A stretch of DNA of 34,665 bases, taken from contig PLEX01000133.1 in the NCBI GenBank assembly GCA_003136575.1, positions 138 through 34,802 on the forward strand, written 5' to 3'. Below are positions 17,261-25,707 of this stretch, piece by piece (position 1 is the stretch's first letter; each line of letters starts with the position of its first letter). Made by a program: the position numbers and the translations under genes. The notes beneath the pieces are model-generated. The model saw nothing but the letters and a program-made list of their open reading frames with translations, was not told the DNA's origin and did no database searches. The stretch comes from Bryobacterales bacterium. Its GTDB lineage: Bacteria > Acidobacteriota > Terriglobia > Bryobacterales > Bryobacteraceae.

Positions 17261-18688
17261 ATGAATAAGATTCCGTTCGCGCGGCGGTTCACGCCGATCA
17301 TCGCCGTTTTTGCCGTCGCCGGCTGGTGCGCCGGGGCCGATGCGCCGGGCCACGACTGGCCTCAGTTCGGCTGGGATGTGGCCAGTTCCAGCGCTTCCGG
17401 CGACGCGACCGGCATCACCGCCGCCAACGTCGGCTCCCTGGTTCGGCATCAGGTGGCGCTGAACGGCACCGTGGATGCTTCGGCGATTTATCTGCACAAT
17501 GTCACCGTCAAAGGGTCGAAGCACAACGTGTTTTTCGTGACCACGCTTTACGGAAGAACCATCGTGGTGGATGCCGATACGGCCACGGTCCTCTGGGAAT
17601 ACACGCCATTGCAGTTTGCCACGTGGGACGGAACGCGGCAGATCACCAATAGTACGCCGGTCGCCGACCCCGACCGACAGAATATCTACACCGCCGCGCC
17701 CGATGGCGCAGTTCGAAAACTCGCCATCTCGGACGGCCACGAAGTCTGGACGACGCCGATTACGCTGCTGCCCGCGCGCGAGAAGATCGCTTCTCCGCTG
17801 AAGGTGTTTCGAGGTCGTGTGATTGCGGTTACGGCCGGATACATCGGCGATCGCCCGCCCTACCAGGGTCATCTGGTGGTCCTCGATGCCAAAGACGGTA
17901 AGTTGCTGCATGTGTGGAATTCGCTTTGCAGCGACCGCGCCGGGTTGATCCAGCCCGATTCGTGCGCGGCTACGCAATCGGCGATCTGGGGGAGAGCGGG
18001 TGCGGTGATCGACCCGGAAACCGGGAATATCTTCGTCGCCACCGGTAACGGCCCGTGGGACGGCAAGACCAGCTGGGCCGACGCACTGATCGAACTGGAC
18101 CCCGACGCCACGAAAATGCTCGGCAACTACACTCCTTCCAACAACGCCGAACTCAGGGCGCGCGACCTCGATATGGGTTCGGCTTCGCCCGCGCTGCTCG
18201 GTGGCGGTTATCTGGCGCAGGGAGGTAAGGACCGGATGATTCGCGTGATCGGCATCAAGGCGATCTCGGGCGCCGATCCGCACCAGAACGACGACCCGCC
18301 GAGCGTGTCCACACCGTCGGGCGGCATGATGCTGCCGGCTACCGCGGTCTGGCATCATGGCGCGGATACGTGGCTGTTCGCCGCCGACGCGGGAGGCACC
18401 GCGGCGTGGACATTCAAAGACGGCAAACTCTCTCCCATGTGGAAGAACGGCAACGGCGGCACGAGTCCGGTAGTGGCCGGTGGCTTGTTATATGTCTACA
18501 ATCCGAGGGGCGGATTACTTGTCTACGACGCGGAAAAAGGACAACAGGTCGCTAGTCTGGAGTGCGGTAGCGGGCATTGGAACAGCCCGATTGTGGTGGA
18601 TGGCAAGGTCGCGCTGCCCGAAGGCGGATCACGGGGACAAGCGGCGGGGACGAATGTGCTGGATATCTGGAGTTTGCCGGCAAAGTAG
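17261..18688 (+). CDS. Secreted PQQ-type beta-propeller protein
   Basis: A 475-aa protein; signal peptide MNKIPFARRFTPIIAVFAVAGWCAGA. Multiple propeller repeats of the PQQ/BamB type are visible: LYGRTIVVDADTATVLWEYT, IYTAAPDGAVRKLAISDGHE, HLVVLDAKDGKLLHVWN, VFIDPETGNIFVATGNG (I read AVIDPETGNIFVATGNG), LYVYNPRGGLLVYDAEKG. The catalytic Asp/Glu set of methanol dehydrogenases and a c-type haem motif (CxxCH) are not visible, so it is more likely a binding or scaffold propeller than an oxidoreductase. Start ATG at 17261 with AAAGG ~10 nt upstream. It is divergent from the esterase, with 168 bp of shared promoter DNA, and stops 189 bp before the peptide operon. Confidence 0.85.
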   Translation: MNKIPFARRFTPIIAVFAVAGWCAGADAPGHDWPQFGWDVASSSASGDATGITAANVGSLVRHQVALNGTVDASAIYLHNVTVKGSKHNVFFVTTLYGRTIVVDADTATVLWEYTPLQFATWDGTRQITNSTPVADPDRQNIYTAAPDGAVRKLAISDGHEVWTTPITLLPAREKIASPLKVFRGRVIAVTAGYIGDRPPYQGHLVVLDAKDGKLLHVWNSLCSDRAGLIQPDSCAATQSAIWGRAGAVIDPETGNIFVATGNGPWDGKTSWADALIELDPDATKMLGNYTPSNNAELRARDLDMGSASPALLGGGYLAQGGKDRMIRVIGIKAISGADPHQNDDPPSVSTPSGGMMLPATAVWHHGADTWLFAADAGGTAAWTFKDGKLSPMWKNGNGGTSPVVAGGLLYVYNPRGGLLVYDAEKGQQVASLECGSGHWNSPIVVDGKVALPEGGSRGQAAGTNVLDIWSLPAK

Positions 18689-18781
18689 CGTGCGCGCGTG
18701 ACGGCCGCGCGGCGAATGTACGCTATGGCACGGAACCGGCGCCGCCGCGGAACTTAACGTCGCGTCCCAATTAGGTGACGC

Positions 18782-18810
18782 TTGACATCCCGACGCCCGT
18801 GCGAGAACAT
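18782..18810 (+). promoter_or_regulatory. Candidate promoter of the peptide operon
   Basis: A perfect -35-like TTGACA at 18782-18787, then 17 nt, then GAACAT at 18805-18810 (3 of 6 matches to the -10 consensus). It lies 68 bp upstream of the first precursor ORF, leaving room for a 5' leader. It is the best promoter-like match in the 189-bp gap; the weak -10 keeps it tentative. Confidence 0.4.
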
Positions 18811-18877
18811 GCGGTGAGGCGGGCAGTTATGACACCGTAACAAGGCTTGTCCAGCCGAATATAAGGAGGCCCTATAT

Positions 18878-19081
18878 ATGGCCGATTACGAACAAAGCAG
18901 CGGGAAGATTATTGCGGAGACGCTTGCAGCGATTCCGCTCACCGAAGAACAATCAGCGCAGCTCAAAAACGACGTGGGAGTGGATATGTCGTGGCTCGTG
19001 ATACAGCGTCTTACGGGCTCGGCGGTGCGAGATATCGATCCGAGCTACGTATCGCTCGTGCGCGCAACCTGGTGCTGGTAA
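18878..19081 (+). CDS. Putative RiPP precursor peptide A (ends TWCW)
   Basis: A 67-aa ORF with a near-ideal ribosome binding site (AAGGAGG at 18863-18869, 8-nt spacing). No signal peptide. The N-terminal ~50 residues (SGKIIAETLAAIP, then LTEEQSAQLKNDVG) look like a helical leader. The C-terminal part RDIDPSYVSLVRATWCW (51-67) is the conserved block, with the only Cys at 66 and Trp at 39, 65 and 67. A paralogue (precursor B) follows after 35 bp and shares D..W, RDIDPS.VSL and the terminal CW at equal spacing. The downstream genes are a B12-type radical SAM enzyme, an arginase-fold enzyme, a kinase-like protein and a caspase-fold protein, which is typical RiPP architecture. The core boundary is unknown. 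Not a family I can name. Confidence 0.82.
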   Translation: MADYEQSSGKIIAETLAAIPLTEEQSAQLKNDVGVDMSWLVIQRLTGSAVRDIDPSYVSLVRATWCW

Positions 19082-19116
19082 CCCGGCACAAGAGATTCAC
19101 TGAAGAGGAGACAGAA

Positions 19117-19338
19117 ATGGAAATTCCGGAACAATCGATAAAGCCCAGGGTTGTAGGCAAGAACGTTCTTCAGGCCGTGGTGGGGGGGCTCGAACTTAAC
19201 GACGACCAGAAGACGCAAATCAAGGAAGCCACGGGAACGGACGTGGAGTGGATACTGTTCAACCAGTATCATCTTTCGTTCGCGCGCGATATAGACCCTT
19301 CAAATGTCTCGCTGATCAAGCTGTCCTACTGCTGGTAA
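19117..19338 (+). CDS. Putative RiPP precursor peptide B (ends SYCW)
   Basis: A 73-aa ORF from ATG at 19117, with the strong Shine-Dalgarno GAAGAGGAGA at 19102-19111. The frame is open further upstream, but this start matches the site and gives the same layout as precursor A. Helical leader-like region (GKNVLQAVVGGLELNDDQK), then ATGTDVEWILFNQ, then the conserved block ARDIDPSNVSLIKLSYCW (56-73). Compared with A, Arg57 (RDIDPS), Asp58, Asp60, Pro61, Ser62, Val64-Ser65-Leu66, Cys72 and Trp73 are conserved, whereas other Arg/Lys positions vary (VR in A, IK in B). The single invariant Arg is therefore the natural candidate for an arginase. The C-terminal aromatic-Cys-Trp is Y-C-W here and W-C-W in A. 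Confidence 0.82.
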   Translation: MEIPEQSIKPRVVGKNVLQAVVGGLELNDDQKTQIKEATGTDVEWILFNQYHLSFARDIDPSNVSLIKLSYCW

Positions 19339-19352
19339 GGGCCTTCAGGCCC
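19339..19352 (+). terminator. Intercistronic hairpin after precursor B
   Basis: GGGCC (19339-19343), loop TTCA, GGCCC (19348-19352) starts directly after the precursor B stop codon. With no T-run it is more likely an attenuator or 3'-end protector that lets precursor mRNA exceed that of the enzymes. Confidence 0.45.
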
Positions 19353-19450
19353 GACAACCTGAAAACCGGGGCGGACTTTCGTGTCGCGACGGGCGGTGGG
19401 CCTGAAAAGACTGAGCTAATGGCTGAGATACGGCCGGGGGGCGGAGCTAT

Positions 19451-20839
19451 ATGACCGGCGAGACCGGTAGCCGGGCCAGGGCGGAGGCGTTCGTGGTGCA
19501 ACTACCGTTCCCTTCCACGTCGGATGCGAACCCGGTAATCCACCGTTATTACACCGATTACGAGCGCCGATTCTCCCGCCTGGTAAGGGATTTTTTTATT
19601 CCGGCGCAGTCCCTTTGGGAGATGCCGCTTTGGGTTGCGCATCTGGCGGGAATGCTGGAGGCGGTGGGTACGGAGCCGGTTTTTCTCGATCTTTCAGGGG
19701 AGGCGCCTCAAGCTGACATCTGCCTGAGGCGAGTGCTGGCGGAGACCAGCACGGGGTCGGTGGTGATGCTCTCGCCGCTGGCCCAGAATCTGCAACTGGC
19801 GCTGACGGTATCTCAAAAACTGATAGCGCACGGGCGACGCACGATCATTGGCGGCAATATGGCGCCCCTGGTGAATCCGAAGGACTGCACGCAGGTGTAT
19901 CGGGGGCTGCTGAATCCGGAGAAACTGCGGGCGATTCTGGCGGGCACACAGAACGGGTGTCCGATCAGCGACATACTCACCCCGCGAGGCCGGATCTCCT
20001 GGGCGCCAAGCTACCGGCTGCTGAGGCGTTACCACGGGAAAGTGCCGCTGCTGCGGCTGATGGCCAGCCACGGGTGCCTGTACGCCTGCTCATTCTGCGG
20101 CGACGCGTGGTCGCAGAAACTGTATGTGACCGATCCGGGGGCGCTCGAATCGGAAGTTCGCGATTTCGAGACTTTGTTCCCGGAAACGCGGCTGATTTAT
20201 ATCGGCGACAAGACGTTCGGGCAGTCCAAAGAAGCGGTGGCGAATCTGCTTTCCGTGTTCTCGAAGCGACGGCAATACCGGTTTATTGTTCAGACGCATA
20301 TCTGCGCGGTGAATACGGAACTGATCGAAACAATGAAGGAGCTCGGGGTGATTGCGGCGGAGGTGGGTTTCGAGAGCGGAAGCAAGGAACTGCTGGCGGA
20401 TTCGCACAAGACTTCGGTGCCGGAGACGCAGTATCTGAAGAACATCGACCGGATCCGGTCGGCGGGGATCGAGGTGATTCTGAACGTGCTGGGCGGGCTT
20501 CCGCAGGAGCGCGCAGAAGACCACGAGTCGACGATCAGGCTGATGCGCAGGTGGTCGGAGCATGTGTTTCTGTACAACCTGTATAATTTTGTGCCTTACC
20601 CGCTCACTCCGGTATTCGAATCGCTCCGGGAGCGAATCACGGACTGGAATTTCGAGCACTGGCGCGAGGATGCACCGCCGGTATTTGTCCCGTATCATCA
20701 GACCATTGAGCAGAGCTGGAACCGGTTTCTGGAGAAGGTAGAGGTGGCGCATGAACTGGTTCGGCGGGCGCCGGGCAGGGAAACGAGGACGAGTGCACGG
20801 TACGAGTATTCAACCATGGATCGAGCTGCTCAGGGATGA
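19451..20839 (+). CDS. B12-binding-type radical SAM enzyme (peptide-modifying candidate)
   Basis: A 462-aa protein. Residues ~55-165 resemble the Rossmann-like cobalamin-binding domain of class B radical SAM proteins (VVMLSPLAQNLQLALTVSQK, IAHGRRTIIGGNMAPL), though the DxHxxG motif is absent. The radical SAM core follows with CLYACSFC, i.e. Cys209-x3-Cys213-x2-Cys216 for the 4Fe-4S cluster, then IYIGDKTFGQSKEAV, VGFESGSKELL and LNVLGGLPQERAEDH, the usual core strands. No SPASM-type Cys-rich C-terminus is visible. Family knowledge: such enzymes C-methylate or otherwise modify unactivated carbons, including in RiPPs. Start ATG at 19451 with GGAG at 19443-19446 (short spacing). The 3' end overlaps the arginase gene by 89 nt, implying one operon. 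Confidence 0.88.
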   Translation: MTGETGSRARAEAFVVQLPFPSTSDANPVIHRYYTDYERRFSRLVRDFFIPAQSLWEMPLWVAHLAGMLEAVGTEPVFLDLSGEAPQADICLRRVLAETSTGSVVMLSPLAQNLQLALTVSQKLIAHGRRTIIGGNMAPLVNPKDCTQVYRGLLNPEKLRAILAGTQNGCPISDILTPRGRISWAPSYRLLRRYHGKVPLLRLMASHGCLYACSFCGDAWSQKLYVTDPGALESEVRDFETLFPETRLIYIGDKTFGQSKEAVANLLSVFSKRRQYRFIVQTHICAVNTELIETMKELGVIAAEVGFESGSKELLADSHKTSVPETQYLKNIDRIRSAGIEVILNVLGGLPQERAEDHESTIRLMRRWSEHVFLYNLYNFVPYPLTPVFESLRERITDWNFEHWREDAPPVFVPYHQTIEQSWNRFLEKVEVAHELVRRAPGRETRTSARYEYSTMDRAAQG

Positions 20840-21824
20840 CGGCGCGGCGCGGGAACTCGGCCCTCAGCCTGGCTGGTGCGGGGTGGCGACGCTCTTTGGC
20901 AGCCGGGGTGGGACGATCGAAGAGCTGAGCGCGGGCGACTATGCGGGGATGGGTGTGCCGTTCGACTCGACGGCGAGTTCGCGGCCGGGCGCGGCTGAGG
21001 GGCCGGACGCGGTGCGGCGGGCCAGCCGTGTTTTCGCGTCCTATCTGAACAGCCTGGGCGAGCATGAAATGTTCGACACGCGGACGGGGGAAGCCTTCCG
21101 GTACCGGGAACCACGGCTGGTGGACACGGGGGACGTAGCGGTGTTTCCAGCGGACATCCGGAGGACGTTCCAGTCGCTGGCGCTGGGGGCGCGCGATGTG
21201 GCGGCGAAAGGGGCGACGCAGGTGGCGATCGGAGGGGATCACTCGGTCAGTTTCCCTCTGTTTGCCGGCTTTCAGGAGGCGGCGAGGAGGCGCGGGCAGG
21301 AGGATCGGGTGGGTTATATCCAGGTGGACCATCATTTCGATTTCGGGGATTCGAGCGCGATTTTCGGACCGGTGTATCACGGATCAAATTCGCGGCGGAT
21401 CAGCGAATTGCCGGGTATGGCGCCAGACCGGATCGCGTTCGTCGGAGCAGGGACAGTGACGAAGCGCGCGCAATTCGATTACTTGCGTGAGACGGGTTAC
21501 CACGTGGTACCGGCGACAACGCTGAAGAATGACGCGGATGCGCTGAAGAGACTGGTGGACAACTTTCGGCGGAACTGCAGCCAGGTTTATCTTTCGCTGG
21601 ACATCGACGTGCTCGACTGCGCGACGGCGCCGGGCACGGGCAATGTGACTTGCGGGGGAATGGACGCGGCGGGCCTGATCGACGCGTTGCGGGTGCTGGC
21701 GGAATTGCCGCTCGGGGCGATTGACGTGGTTGAGGTGGCCCCGCGCTACGATCCGACCGGACGCACGCCAGCGCTGGCGGCACAGGCGCTGGTGGAGCTG
21801 ATATACCGCTGCCCGTGCGCATGA
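20751..21824 (+). CDS. Arginase/agmatinase-fold enzyme (candidate peptide arginase)
   Basis: A 357-aa ureohydrolase with the full binuclear Mn site: GGDHS (His164), DHHFD (Asp193, His195, Asp197) and SLDIDVLD (Asp284, Asp286), followed by APGTGNVTCGG and VEVAPRYDPTGRT. It cleaves a guanidine group to urea plus an amine. Inside a peptide operon this points to a peptide arginase, making ornithine from Arg in the precursor, as known for OspR in landornamide biosynthesis; free arginine or agmatine cannot be excluded. ATG at 20751 has GAGGTGG upstream but overlaps the radical SAM gene by 89 nt; an in-frame GTG at 20793 is an alternative start. The stop overlaps the next start as ATGA. Confidence 0.9.
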   Translation: MNWFGGRRAGKRGRVHGTSIQPWIELLRDDGAARELGPQPGWCGVATLFGSRGGTIEELSAGDYAGMGVPFDSTASSRPGAAEGPDAVRRASRVFASYLNSLGEHEMFDTRTGEAFRYREPRLVDTGDVAVFPADIRRTFQSLALGARDVAAKGATQVAIGGDHSVSFPLFAGFQEAARRRGQEDRVGYIQVDHHFDFGDSSAIFGPVYHGSNSRRISELPGMAPDRIAFVGAGTVTKRAQFDYLRETGYHVVPATTLKNDADALKRLVDNFRRNCSQVYLSLDIDVLDCATAPGTGNVTCGGMDAAGLIDALRVLAELPLGAIDVVEVAPRYDPTGRTPALAAQALVELIYRCPCA

Positions 21825-22750
21825 TGAGCGGCATACCGGAGTGCCCCCGCGACCTGGAGGCGGCGATGGCGCTGGCCGCAAGAGAGCTGGCAGCCCGCGC
21901 CGACCTGGAGGCGGAGGACTTGCGGTATTTCTCCGCAGGCCTGGAGTTTGTGGTTTGCCGCGGCCGGTTGCGCGGGGTGGGCGAGATCGTAGTGCGGTTC
22001 CCGTGGGTTCGCTGGATCCATAACGACAACGACGTGGACCTGGACGCGCGGGACCTGCTCAGGCAGGAAGCGGAGCTGCTGCAGTTTGCGAGATCGGTGG
22101 GGATTCCGGCTCCGAGGGTCGTGAAGCTGAGCCTGGGGGATGCATGCGATTTCCTGGTAACGGAGTATCTTGAGCACGACGATTCGGAGCCGGATCCGCG
22201 GGAACTGGGGGAGATTCTGGCGCGGCTGCACGGGGCGGCTGCGCCCGTGCGCGCGCCGGTGTTGCATTTTGGCCAGAGCACGGACGAGGTTTTGGCGCAG
22301 CGGCTGCGGCATCGGGCCGATGTTTGCGAACGGCTGGGTGGTGTGCGGCTGGGACTGCCCGATGCGGCGCGGATGAGGGCGGAGCTGCGGAGTTTTCCGG
22401 CGCGGAGGCGGCTGCTGCATATGGATTTTCGGCGCGCCAACATCCTGGCGCGGGAGGGCCGAGTGGCGGGGGTAATCGACTGGTCAAACGCGCTGACGGG
22501 CGACCCGGCGCTTGAGGTATGCCGGATCGCTGAGTTTCGGGAACAGCCGGCCGGTCTTACGGATGGCTACGGCGGGGCTGCGGCTTGGCCGGTCGCGCCG
22601 CCGGTGGTGGATCTGCTCTACAGGCTGGATACGGCCGTTATGCTGGGTGTGGTGTTTTTGTCGGAGGCGCCGGACGCGGGCAAGGCGGCTGTGCAGCTGG
22701 CGAGGATTGACGAACTGGCTTTCGAGCTGAACTGGAGGATGCCGAGGTGA
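21821..22750 (+). CDS. APH-family kinase-like protein
   Basis: A 309-aa protein of the aminoglycoside phosphotransferase/choline-kinase fold. The frame opens at GTG 21815 but the ATG at 21821 overlaps the arginase TGA (ATGA), the expected coupled start. Catalytic loop LLHMDFRRANIL (His200, Asp202, Asn207) and the Mg-binding VIDWSNALTGDPALE (Asp220) are intact. The N-lobe has IVVRFPW and RQEAELLQFARSVGIPAP; a clear Lys for ATP binding is not obvious. Its place in the operon suggests it phosphorylates the peptide, a modified side chain such as ornithine or Ser/Tyr, or confers self-protection. Not predicted to be membrane bound. The end overlaps the next gene by 4 bp (GTGA). Confidence 0.85.
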   Translation: MMSGIPECPRDLEAAMALAARELAARADLEAEDLRYFSAGLEFVVCRGRLRGVGEIVVRFPWVRWIHNDNDVDLDARDLLRQEAELLQFARSVGIPAPRVVKLSLGDACDFLVTEYLEHDDSEPDPRELGEILARLHGAAAPVRAPVLHFGQSTDEVLAQRLRHRADVCERLGGVRLGLPDAARMRAELRSFPARRRLLHMDFRRANILAREGRVAGVIDWSNALTGDPALEVCRIAEFREQPAGLTDGYGGAAAWPVAPPVVDLLYRLDTAVMLGVVFLSEAPDAGKAAVQLARIDELAFELNWRMPR

Positions 22751-25008
22751 GTCTCGCCCGCAGGATCGTGGGCGTTCGATTCGGACCTTTGCCGGACCCT
22801 GAGCCACTGCGTTTCCGGGCGAATTCGGAGGGTGTCATTGCGTATCTGCGCGGCGACACGTTGAATGTCGCGATGGCCCGGCGGTGGCTGGCGAGACTGT
22901 CCATTGCGGTTTACGAAGGCGAGATCCGGGACGCGGCGCTGGCGGAGCCGTTCCTGACAGTTCCGACGCTGGCGATTAGCGTGGACCGGCGGATCGACAG
23001 CATCGCGCGGATGTTTGCGGGGGCGGCGGGGGCTGAGTTCGTTGCGGCGGCCGGAACGGCGGAAGCGGTATTGGCGACGGAAGGACGCGCGGGCTCAAGG
23101 AGCAATACGGTGTTCGTGCTGAACGACCGTCTAACGCACGCCCTGTGTCTGGGACTGGGGGCGGCCGGGCGGAGGCGGATGGCGGCGGGAGAGTGGGTGA
23201 GGCCGAGCGGATTCATGACTGCGTTTACGCCGGAACAGCTGGCGTGGCTGACGGTGAAGACGCTGGCGCTGATGACGAACGGGTTTCCCGAGACGATGGG
23301 ATTTTCCGAATTCAATGCGCACGGGGGCGGAGCGAGGTTTCAGCGCTATTCGAAAGACGGGGCGGCCGAGGGGGTGCCCGATGCGGATCTGAGGATGGAA
23401 TCGGAGGAGACGACAATTCAGAGTATTTGCTCGCATGGGGTGTCGTTCGATGCGCAGGTGGGGGACGTGGCGCTGTGCGGGCACATGGACCCGCCGCTGA
23501 GTCAGCTGCGGATGGCGCAGGCGCCGGTTTGTTTTCACGACGGGAAGTGCTTTCGGCTGAACCGTTCGAGCGAGTCGCCGACGCGCGTACTGAAGGCGGT
23601 GCAGGCAACGCCGATGGTTTGGTTTCTGAATGCGTGTGGCGCGATTCCGTTCGGCAACAGTGCGTTCGGCGACGGGACGGGCTACGCGTTCGGGTTGCTG
23701 GCCGGTGCGGCGGTGGCCGTGATTGGTCCCTATCTGGCGCAGCCGACAACATTCTGGCCGAACCGGGTGTTTGAAGGGCTGGTGACGACGGGCGCCTGTT
23801 TGGGCGAGACGGTGGTGGCTCTCTCTCAGGCGGAGGAGCAGGCGGATTTCGAATCCTACATACTGCTGGGTTGCCCGGAATTGCGGATGTTCGAGTGGAC
23901 TGGCGTCGGGCGCGAGGGCGATTCGCCAGACTACCGGATCCAGGGTCGGTCGCGAACGGCGGTCCGGCTGCCGGCACCGACGCAAGGCGCTTGCCACGTG
24001 GTGGCGGACGACGGGACGGCGCTGTGGGAACAGGCGGACCATCAGTTGGTGCGCTATGGATCGGCACGGGAGATATTGCTGCTGTTTGCGGCGGCCGTGG
24101 ATATAGACGGCTGGGTCCGGCTGGGCGGCGGGCAGTGCAGCGACGAACAGTTGCTCGAAGAGGCTGCCGAGATCCGCCGGCGGCTGGGGGTGTTGGCGCT
24201 ATACGTGTTTTGCGCCGAAGAGCGGCAGGAGATCGAAAACTGCAAGGCCCTGGCCGAGAGACTGGAGAATCTGCTTCGGGGTGCCCGGTGGGCGAGGAAG
24301 CGGATCTATGCGGCGTGGTTTTATGCGAAGCTGCAGGTAACGACCGAGGCGCTGCAGGAGCGGGTGGCGGAGCGGTTTCTGGCACATGTGGCTCGGGTGG
24401 ATTTCAGCTTCGACCGGGAGAGTTCAAACGGCTTCGTGGCGGGGCAATTGAGGATCAGCGAGGAACTGTGTCCGCAGTGTGGCGATACTCTGTACCTGGC
24501 GAACGACCGGTGGATGAATGAAGAATCGTACGAGCGGCTGAAATACGTATGCGCGAACTGCTTCAGCGTGAAGATGTTCCTGACGTCGAGCCCGATTCGG
24601 GTGGTATCGGCGGCGATGGAAGTGAGCGTGGAAGAGCTGGAAGCGCGGCAGCGGATCGAAATCGCGAACCGGACCGGGAGGGTGGCGCAGGTGCTGGCGG
24701 CGGCGATTTCGCGTCACGGGCCTGCGGAGGCCGCTTCGGGTCCGGTGAAACTCCTGGTACCCGCGTACGAAACCATGGCGCATACGTTTGTATTTCCGCT
24801 GGATCCGGCGAGGCGGGGAGTGATTTCGTACCGGGCGATCCTGCTTTGCCAAGGGTCGGCGGAGTTTTATTCGTTCAAGTATGGGAACGAAAGACCAATG
24901 GGCGGTCTAGGGGATGTGGGGGCGGAGTTGGCGCAGATCGGAGATTGTCCACGTGGGCTGGTGTCTTCCGGCGGGGTAAGGACGCGCGGCGGGGCTGAGC
25001 CAGATTGA
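22747..25008 (+). CDS. Large caspase-fold (clan CD-like) cysteine peptidase candidate with zinc ribbon
   Basis: A 753-aa protein, GTG start at 22747 with GGAGG 8 nt upstream. Residues ~90-385 have the order of a caspase-fold peptidase: TTIQSICSHGVSFDA (His230) after a strand, VWFLNACGAIPFGN (Cys297) and a closing YILLGCPELRMFEW strand reminiscent of the C25 gingipain end 'LLGDPxLR'. The His-to-Cys gap (67) is long and the N-terminal ~200 residues match nothing I know. A zinc ribbon follows: CPQC (575, 578) and CANC (602, 605). The C-terminal ~150 residues are unassigned. In this operon it could cleave the leader, release the product, or act as the effector triggered by it; CHAT-like proteins remain an alternative. 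No signal peptide. It overlaps the convergent HAD gene by 102 nt. Confidence 0.72.
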   Translation: MSLARRIVGVRFGPLPDPEPLRFRANSEGVIAYLRGDTLNVAMARRWLARLSIAVYEGEIRDAALAEPFLTVPTLAISVDRRIDSIARMFAGAAGAEFVAAAGTAEAVLATEGRAGSRSNTVFVLNDRLTHALCLGLGAAGRRRMAAGEWVRPSGFMTAFTPEQLAWLTVKTLALMTNGFPETMGFSEFNAHGGGARFQRYSKDGAAEGVPDADLRMESEETTIQSICSHGVSFDAQVGDVALCGHMDPPLSQLRMAQAPVCFHDGKCFRLNRSSESPTRVLKAVQATPMVWFLNACGAIPFGNSAFGDGTGYAFGLLAGAAVAVIGPYLAQPTTFWPNRVFEGLVTTGACLGETVVALSQAEEQADFESYILLGCPELRMFEWTGVGREGDSPDYRIQGRSRTAVRLPAPTQGACHVVADDGTALWEQADHQLVRYGSAREILLLFAAAVDIDGWVRLGGGQCSDEQLLEEAAEIRRRLGVLALYVFCAEERQEIENCKALAERLENLLRGARWARKRIYAAWFYAKLQVTTEALQERVAERFLAHVARVDFSFDRESSNGFVAGQLRISEELCPQCGDTLYLANDRWMNEESYERLKYVCANCFSVKMFLTSSPIRVVSAAMEVSVEELEARQRIEIANRTGRVAQVLAAAISRHGPAEAASGPVKLLVPAYETMAHTFVFPLDPARRGVISYRAILLCQGSAEFYSFKYGNERPMGGLGDVGAELAQIGDCPRGLVSSGGVRTRGGAEPD

Positions 25009-25707
25009 GCGCATGCCGAAGGAACTGGCACCCCAGATATCGGCGACGGCATCGTCGCCGATATGGACGATGTGTTGCGGCGAGAGATTCAGTTTTTCGA
25101 GCAGGGCGCGGAACATGGCGGGATGGGGCTTACAGAAACCGATGTTTTCGGAGAGAATTGTGGCGTCGAACAGGCCTTCGAGGCCGGATTTGCTGAGCAG
25201 ATTCCCGATGGCGCTGGCATGGCTGAGATTTGAGAGTAGCGCTACCCGGAAGCCTGCCGTGCGGAGAGCGCGGAGGACTTCCAGTGCCCCAGGGCAGGCA
25301 TGAATGGAGGCCGCGATGGCTTCCATCTGGATGTCGCAGAGGCGGGCGGCGAGAATTTCCGGATGGGTATATCGGGGGGCACCCAGGCCACTGAGAACGG
25401 CTTCGAAAAGGAACTGGTCGGGTATTTCGCGGCATTGTTCGGGGGGGAAAGGGGGCCGGACGGGCTGCGAGGCGAGGGTGTTGAGGATTTCGATGCGGGT
25501 GGCGGCGGGGTACTCGGGGGCAAGGGCGTCGGCGAGAAGTGGAAGCGTGGAACGGTGGTTGGCGCCGTTGAAGTTCAGGTGCGGAAGGCGCGCGGGGTCG
25601 ACGGAGACGAGGGTGTCGAAAAGGTCGAAGGAGACGGCCCGGACGACGCCCGAGGCCAACTGGTGTCTGAGGCCATCCAAGGGATCACTGCGGTTCGAGC
25701 CTGACAC
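24907..25707 (-). CDS. HAD-superfamily hydrolase
   Basis: A 266-aa protein started by GTG at 25707. All HAD motifs are present: SFDLFDTL (motif I, nucleophile Asp28 and Asp30/31), ALLSNLS (II), CKPHPAMF (III, Lys) and HIGDDAVADIWGA (IV, the double Asp). The cap inserts between I and II, so it resembles the beta-phosphoglucomutase/phosphatase subfamily. It hydrolyses a phosphate ester or a C-Cl bond in the cytoplasm; the substrate is unknown. It lies convergent to the peptide operon, overlapping the end of its last gene by 102 nt, so co-regulation is unproven. Confidence 0.88.
   Translation of the reverse strand: MSGSNRSDPLDGLRHQLASGVVRAVSFDLFDTLVSVDPARLPHLNFNGANHRSTLPLLADALAPEYPAATRIEILNTLASQPVRPPFPPEQCREIPDQFLFEAVLSGLGAPRYTHPEILAARLCDIQMEAIAASIHACPGALEVLRALRTAGFRVALLSNLSHASAIGNLLSKSGLEGLFDATILSENIGFCKPHPAMFRALLEKLNLSPQHIVHIGDDAVADIWGASSFGMRSIWLSPAARPYPAGRHQPTWTISDLRQLRPHIP

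What the first reader, a model, noticed from the sequence alone, without database searches (positions are those of the whole stretch)
18878..25008. Candidate new RiPP pathway: two CW-ending precursors with B12-radical SAM, arginase, APH kinase and caspase-fold genes
Seen: two small paralogous ORFs with very strong ribosome binding sites, then four genes linked by 89-, 4- and 4-nt overlaps. Known: B12-type radical SAM enzymes and arginases each occur in RiPP pathways (peptide arginase OspR makes ornithine). Inference: this gene set, including an APH-like kinase and a caspase-fold zinc-ribbon protein, is not a RiPP class I recognise. No transporter is present, so the product may stay in the cell or use another exporter.
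Basis: partly seen in the sequence, partly recalled or inferred. Interest (0 to 1): 0.95.

Follow-up and report, generated by a model that had tools for sequence, protein, structure and literature searches.

The report
Arginine-tailoring enzyme cassette with two mini-proteins
A bacterium carries a rare, apparently undescribed set of three enzymes that probably remodel an arginine side chain, and here the set sits behind two tiny paired proteins that may be what the enzymes work on.

Summary
The genes are as described, with caveats on start codons. The two small ORFs (67 and 73 aa) are real paralogues under selection; the four larger genes overlap. Comparison changes the interpretation. Radical-SAM, arginase-fold and APH-kinase genes form a conserved cassette: of 16 close relatives (15 genome loci in Actinomycetota and Bacillota, one Mesorhizobium plasmid), 16 have the arginase and 15 an APH-kinase near the radical-SAM gene. 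No relative of the CW peptides was found with them. Instead they carry PEARL-like ligases (7/16), FemAB/GNAT transferases (7/16), a conserved unknown protein (15/16) and exporters (12/16): small-molecule logic. So the enzyme set does not define a new RiPP class. My reading: an undescribed arginine-tailoring cassette, possibly rewired here to a peptide-borne arginine (the only Arg shared by both peptides lies in the block RDIDPS). 'Caspase fold' could not be shown; 'B12-type' rests on a predicted fold, not on shown cobalamin binding. Eight full-text searches of an open-access library listed no paper on the set.

The parts
18782..18787 (+). TTGACA, possible -35 element
   Evidence: Exact TTGACA; the promoter scan found no site passing its threshold in 18500-25300, so this is weak.
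18878..19081 (+). small ORF A1, 67 aa, ends in CW; candidate precursor or carrier peptide
   Evidence: ORF with strong Shine-Dalgarno; paralogue of A2 with synonymous codon differences in shared residues; no Pfam hit, one sub-threshold NCBIfam match (E 0.023).
19117..19338 (+). small ORF A2, 73 aa, ends in CW; candidate precursor or carrier peptide
   Evidence: The pair was found only in this genome: 1 of 101 genomes with A1 as query; with both as profile, only G000 below E 0.05 among 17 genomes or records.
19451..20839 (+). radical-SAM enzyme with predicted B12-type fold (C-x3-C-x2-C at residues 209-216)
   Evidence: PF04055; fold matches AprD4, TsrM, CysS, TokK, OxsB, also MiaB; 42-53% identical relatives.
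20751..21824 (+). arginase/agmatinase-fold ureohydrolase with metal-ligand motifs retained
   Evidence: PF00491 2.1e-58; H164, D193-x-H195-x-D197 and D284-x-D286 invariant in the window protein and 10 of 16 relatives aligned.
21815..22750 (+). APH-fold kinase with HxDxRxxN and D222 retained (ATG start also possible at 21821)
   Evidence: PF01636 1.3e-19; motif invariant in the window protein and 10 of 15 relatives aligned.
22747..25008 (+). 753-aa protein without detected relatives; SHG...NAC motif and two CxxC pairs
24907..25707 (-). HAD-family hydrolase gene, convergent and overlapping the 753-aa gene by 102 nt; possible phosphatase counterpart of the kinase (inference)
   Evidence: PF00702 7.3e-22; found only in G000 among 41 genomes at E<=1e-30.

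Best explanation
A rare natural-product cassette that remodels an arginine side chain. The radical-SAM enzyme (predicted B12-type fold) alters an unactivated position of an arginine-derived substrate; the ureohydrolase removes the guanidine carbon as urea, leaving an ornithine-like amine; the APH-fold kinase phosphorylates the intermediate or product. In the relatives the product appears to be a small amino-acid derivative, extended by tRNA-dependent ligases or an ATP-grasp ligase and exported. In this bacterium the cassette has most likely been wired to two ribosomal peptides: the only arginine shared by both lies in their best conserved block (RDIDPS), and the 753-aa protein with an SHG...NAC motif would cut the product free. 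Shown by computation: the cassette, its conservation, its catalytic motifs, and that the peptides are real paralogues. Predicted: the radical-SAM fold. Inferred: arginine as substrate, order of steps, use of the peptides, proteolysis.
For: Arginase homologue in 16 of 16 relatives and kinase in 15 of 16, in two phyla and on a conjugative plasmid of a third. Metal ligands and kinase motif invariant in the sequences aligned (window plus 10 relatives each). Fold hits AprD4, TsrM, CysS, TokK, OxsB. Cobalamin adenosyltransferase homologue in 6 of 16 relatives. PEARL-like in 7 and FemAB/GNAT in 7 of 16. Peptides: strong ribosome-binding sites, upstream of and in line with the cassette, synonymous divergence in the conserved block, one shared Arg.
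Against: No relative of the CW peptides was found with any of the 16; the peptides are known from one genome only; a 112-nt gap separates A2 from the radical-SAM gene; no leader-recognition family was hit; the 753-aa protein is not shown to be a protease; PF00491 enzymes mostly act on small guanidines (recalled), and the nearest solved ones here are guanidinobutyrase and agmatinase-2 types. The fold hits include MiaB, which is not a B12 enzyme (recalled), and the best hit AprD4 is a dehydratase.
Confidence: 0.42

Rival explanations
1. The cassette makes a small arginine-derived metabolite from free substrate, as in its relatives; the two peptides are not its substrates (small proteins with another role that happen to share the operon).
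For: 15 of 16 relatives carry all three enzymes and no relative of these peptides was found with them. In Bacillus fonticola nine genes run with gaps of at most 17 nt, and in Streptomyces naganishii eight genes with gaps of at most 48 nt (starts are those of the longest ORFs, so true gaps may be somewhat larger).
Against: The operon here lacks the partners that make the small-molecule reading convincing in the relatives: the conserved unknown protein (none at E<=0.001 in the held genome, 83% complete), and PEARL-like, FemAB-like and exporter genes. The peptides directly precede the cassette and have strong ribosome-binding sites.
Confidence: 0.38
2. Pearlin-like carrier logic: A1 and A2 are carriers whose C-terminal Cys-Trp (or an amino acid added to it) is modified and then clipped off, the product being a modified amino acid.
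For: Carrier peptides with C-terminal modification are known, with a cobalamin radical-SAM enzyme among the tailors in one case (PMC9303977, passages). Both peptides end in CW. PEARL-like genes occur with this cassette in 7 of 16 relatives.
Against: No PEARL-like gene was found in the window's 83%-complete genome at E<=0.001 (its 14-genome control also rang nowhere, so this is weak). No carrier-like peptide was seen in the relatives' PEARL-like clusters that were read. It leaves the arginase without an evident role.
Confidence: 0.12
3. Not a pathway: a degenerating remnant of an acquired cassette, with unrelated neighbours.
For: The conserved unknown protein and exporter are missing from the operon; long branches of the window radical-SAM and arginase proteins (0.95 and 1.18 changes per column).
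Against: All six frames are open, catalytic residues are kept, ribosome-binding sites and overlaps are intact, and third-position GC (0.65-0.79) is in the coding range of three neighbouring genes (0.75-0.79) or a little below it.
Confidence: 0.08

Closest known systems
Enteropeptin pathway (KgrD arginase, pfam00491)
   Same: RiPP in which a PF00491 arginase turns an arginine of the peptide to ornithine (PMC12703449, passages); a radical-SAM step is recalled
   Different: Different partners; no APH kinase or large unknown protein known to me there (recalled); no sequence comparison with KgrD was made here
OspR-type peptide arginases (landornamide; PbsE of a biphenomycin-like pathway)
   Same: Peptide arginine to ornithine
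   Different: pfam12640, not PF00491
Pearlins (3-thiaglutamate, 3-thiahomoleucine, ammosamides)
   Same: Small carrier peptide; cobalamin radical-SAM tailor in one case; PEARL-like genes in 7 of 16 relatives of this cassette
   Different: No PEARL-like gene found with the peptides (weak control); no arginase in the passages seen
AprD4 (apramycin) and TsrM/CysS/TokK/OxsB radical-SAM enzymes
   Same: Two-domain fold; radical-SAM core similarity
   Different: At most about 18% identity in the fold alignments listed; far below every NCBIfam cut-off (best 52 bits against 600)
Proclavaminate amidinohydrolase / guanidinobutyrase
   Same: PF00491 fold; removal of a guanidino carbon in clavulanic acid synthesis (role recalled; similarity)
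   Different: Different pathway and only distant similarity
APH-like kinases of class V lanthipeptides and thioamitides (recalled)
   Same: APH-fold kinase in a RiPP context
   Different: Its HopA1-type lyase partner (recalled) was not hit among the six genes; this kinase matches those of the cassettes without such peptides

Membership tests
RiPP biosynthetic cluster | Gene-encoded small peptide beside tailoring enzymes | tested here: met
   A1 and A2 upstream of the enzymes
RiPP biosynthetic cluster | Precursor travels with the enzymes in other genomes | tested here: not met
   0 of 16 relative genomes or records have a convincing A1/A2 relative; weak matches at E 0.08-0.57 in 3 of 16; none in the loci below E 9
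RiPP biosynthetic cluster | Leader-recognition domain or dedicated leader protease | tested here: inconclusive
   No such family hit; the 753-aa protein is unassigned
RiPP biosynthetic cluster | Peptide is modified by the enzymes | not testable with these tools
   Needs co-expression and mass spectrometry
Peptide arginase pfam12640 (OspR type) | pfam12640 domain | tested here: not met
   Only PF00491 found; definition from PMC12703449 passages
PF00491 ureohydrolase | Fold family and the metal-ligand motifs | tested here: met
Cobalamin-dependent radical-SAM methyltransferase | Rossmann-like N-terminal domain plus radical-SAM core with CxxxCxxC | tested here: met
   Predicted model pLDDT 74.6, pTM 0.77; fold hits; motif
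Cobalamin-dependent radical-SAM methyltransferase | Binds cobalamin and transfers methyl | not testable with these tools
   The top fold hit AprD4 is a dehydratase, so the fold alone does not decide; adenosyltransferase neighbours in 6 of 16 relatives are indirect
Pearlin pathway | PEARL enzyme (Lant_dehydr_N) | tested here: inconclusive
   None in G000, but its 14-genome control rang nowhere and the genome is 83% complete
Caspase/CHAT/C25 protease | Recognisable family or fold | tested here: inconclusive
   No Pfam hit returned at max E 10 for two fragments; model unusable; only the SHG...NAC motif (motif meaning recalled)

The most novel reading that the evidence does not exclude
A cassette that elsewhere builds a small arginine-derived metabolite has here been transferred onto ribosomal peptides: the arginine in RDIDPS is changed by the radical-SAM enzyme, trimmed by the ureohydrolase, phosphorylated by the kinase, and released by a protease of a new family. 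That would be a metabolite pathway converted into a RiPP pathway, with living relatives of the unconverted form for comparison.
Probability: 0.35. Interest if true: 0.85.

Novelty: new variant of a known kind. Interest (0 to 1): 0.6.

Why it matters
The three-enzyme cassette recurs in Actinomycetota, Bacillota and on a Mesorhizobium plasmid, including named Streptomyces, Micromonospora, Catenulispora and Bacillus strains (record titles), and eight searches listed no description of it, so its product can be sought directly. If the peptides are its substrates here, the locus is a case of small-molecule tailoring enzymes recruited to a ribosomal peptide, a step in RiPP evolution that, to my knowledge, is rarely caught with both forms extant.

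Tried and rejected
Rejected: OspR-type arginase (wrong family). A weak relative of the 753-aa protein in G502: it is a 62-residue match that, to my reading, lies in a frame that is not a gene. Riboswitch or known RNA in the window: none at gathering thresholds. The hairpin just after A2: stable, but not unusual for its composition (z -1.2 for the short stretch, -1.5 for the whole gap) and not listed as a terminator. Defence-system reading: only weak PADLOC hits (E 0.00023 for the radical-SAM protein, 0.023 for the 753-aa protein). Empty-site comparison: the PQQ-repeat gene before the operon has a match at E<=1e-60 in 3 of 40 relatives; in the two of these that I extended, the genes around it differ, so no insertion site can be read. 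Viral scans found nothing; plasmid and phage scans for the 753-aa protein and a plasmid scan for A2 found nothing. The PDB gives no match to the conserved unknown protein.

Led nowhere: AlphaFold of the 753-aa protein from one sequence.

Left out of parts of the work: the radical-SAM alignment A2 holds 13 of the 16 relatives, the arginase and kinase alignments 10 each, the alignment of the unknown protein 8 of 15; the trees hold 15 of 16 (L019 left out) plus the distant L021 in the radical-SAM tree.
Full report
Observation. The six ORFs are as described. The two small ORFs are genuine paralogues: 34% identical, with 13 of 23 shared residues written in different codons and 12 of the last 20 residues identical, a level reached by 0 of 200,000 residue shuffles. 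They share R-D-I-D-P-S-x-V-S-L and end in Cys-Trp; the arginine of that block is the only arginine shared in the alignment. Both have strong ribosome-binding sites. The enzymes follow after 112 nt and overlap one another; the 89-nt overlap depends on the upstream start codon of the arginase.

Identity of the parts. Pfam gives Radical_SAM, Arginase (PF00491) and APH; nothing for the peptides; for the 753-aa protein only sub-threshold, mostly zinc-ribbon matches. NCBIfam places the radical-SAM protein near, but far below the cut-off of, B12-type families (best PhpK-type, 52 bits against 600). Its model (14-row alignment, pLDDT 74.6, pTM 0.77) matches AprD4 first (TM 0.60), then TsrM, MgmA, CysS, MiaB, TokK and OxsB. 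This supports the B12-type architecture but not cobalamin binding: AprD4, the best match, is a dehydratase and MiaB is not a B12 enzyme (recalled). The ureohydrolase keeps H164, D193-x-H195-x-D197 and D284-x-D286 in the window protein and all 10 relatives aligned, and the kinase keeps HxDxRxxN and D222 likewise. The nearest solved relatives of the ureohydrolase are guanidinobutyrase and agmatinase-2 types. The 753-aa protein has an SHG...NAC arrangement and two CxxC pairs, but no family match was returned at max E 10 for two fragments and its model is unusable (pLDDT 32.7); 'caspase fold' remains a guess.

Distribution. The peptides were found only there: 1 of 101 genomes. The 753-aa protein: 1 of 151 and 2 of 396, the second a short match that I reject. 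The radical-SAM protein: only G000 among 61 genomes at E<=1e-20 and 396 genomes of the phylum at E<=1e-30. A pattern scan of the species-genome collection gave 16 loci, one of them only a distant match (L021); the other 15 are 42-53% identical. A Mesorhizobium conjugative plasmid gave one more at 51%. Thus 16 close relatives, a minimum. Sampling 348 genomes of the phylum of G551 (the genome of L018, Bacillus fonticola) and 296 of the phylum of G539 (the genome of L006, Streptosporangium carneum) at E<=1e-60 found only the seed genome each time: the family is rare.

The cassette. Of the 16 relatives, counted by tblastn at E<=1e-6 in the fetched stretch (L021 also searched, no partner found): arginase 16, APH 15 (L016 shows only a weak hit on the other strand), a conserved protein of about 350-377 aa with no significant Pfam or PDB match in those tested 15, PEARL-like Lant_dehydr_N proteins 7, FemAB/GNAT-like proteins 7, MFS exporter 12, PHP or histidine phosphatase 9 (seven and two; short PHP matches in L007 and L011 were dropped because the query ORF overlaps the neighbouring gene), cobalamin adenosyltransferase 6. 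The unknown protein was not found at E<=0.001 in G000 or on the Mesorhizobium plasmid. Its invariant PH-x-DG and N-x4-H motifs (8 sequences) recall Fe/2-oxoglutarate oxygenases; this is recall and was not tested. In Bacillus fonticola an ATP-grasp ligase resembling L-amino-acid ligases ends the run. In the radical-SAM tree the window protein lies with the plasmid and the two Bacillota proteins (99/98), on a long branch; in the arginase tree its place is unresolved. Joint inheritance is suggested by gene order, not proven by trees.

Peptides in the relatives. A profile search of the loci gave nothing below E 9. A whole-genome search of the 16 relatives gave only E 0.08-0.57 matches in three. 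A mechanical list of ORFs of 25-150 aa ending in CW in the 16 loci gives four, in three loci; all lie outside the cassette, none has a Shine-Dalgarno-like site or resembles A1/A2. Small ORFs just outside the cassettes, listed on the + strand for 12 of the 16 loci, show nothing like A1/A2; one (L008, GTG start) has a Shine-Dalgarno-like site. The nine-gene Bacillus run has no gap above 17 nt and the eight-gene Streptomyces naganishii run none above 48 nt, by longest-ORF starts. Hence the enzymes do not seem to need such a peptide there. A diverged, unrelated or distant precursor in the relatives is not excluded. Nor does it refute use of the peptides here, because the window differs from most relatives just where it would have to: no unknown protein, no aminoacyl transferase and no exporter hit in the window, but two peptides and a large novel protein. 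(The plasmid locus also lacks the unknown protein, transferase and exporter, and has no such peptides.)

Mechanism. Most likely an arginine-type guanidino substrate is altered by the radical-SAM enzyme, relieved of its guanidine carbon as urea by the ureohydrolase, and phosphorylated by the kinase; 9 of 16 relatives carry a phosphatase-type gene too. Next to the window operon lies a convergent HAD hydrolase gene, also without a match at E<=1e-30 in 40 relatives, which may be the counterpart (inference). Whether the substrate here is free or is the arginine of RDIDPS I put at near even odds.

Literature. Eight full-text searches of an open-access library listed no paper that appeared to describe this set; subscription papers are mostly not held. 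Passages read: PMC12703449 (peptide arginases, KgrD), PMC9303977 (pearlins), PMC12945691 (GNAT-fold transferases). PMC10885120 was searched for six terms for caspase-type proteases and holds none. The other papers were seen in search listings only.

Changes made on checking: the relatives are now called genome loci instead of chromosomal, the organism is no longer called a soil bacterium (no call says so), the number of loci inspected for small ORFs is 12, the alignments' coverage is stated, and one search was added.

Noticed in passing
24907-25707 (-): HAD-family hydrolase gene overlaps the 3' end of the 753-aa gene by 102 nt tail to tail and has no match at E<=1e-30 in 40 relatives; it may belong to the same acquired block.
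   Followed up: partly
L018 5325-14412; L017 8465-15468: L018 (Bacillus fonticola): compact run of adenosyltransferase, arginase, APH, unknown protein, GNAT, radical-SAM, histidine phosphatase, MFS and ATP-grasp ligase genes. L017 (Paenibacillus MAG): a similar set, with the adenosyltransferase on the other strand.
   Followed up: partly
L010 7340-19130; also L009, L012, L013, L015, L019, L020: Two PEARL-like Lant_dehydr_N genes flank the cassette in L010, at least one in each of the others by similarity; no carrier peptide gene seen in the L010 run, suggesting ligases acting on a small molecule.
   Followed up: partly
L022 9001-13048: The three-gene core alone on a conjugative Mesorhizobium plasmid, with transposase genes on both sides.
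   Followed up: partly
alignment A5: Conserved unknown protein of 15 of 16 cassettes with invariant PH-x-DG and C-x-C-x2-C motifs and no PDB match; possibly an iron oxygenase (recalled motif, untested).
   Followed up: partly
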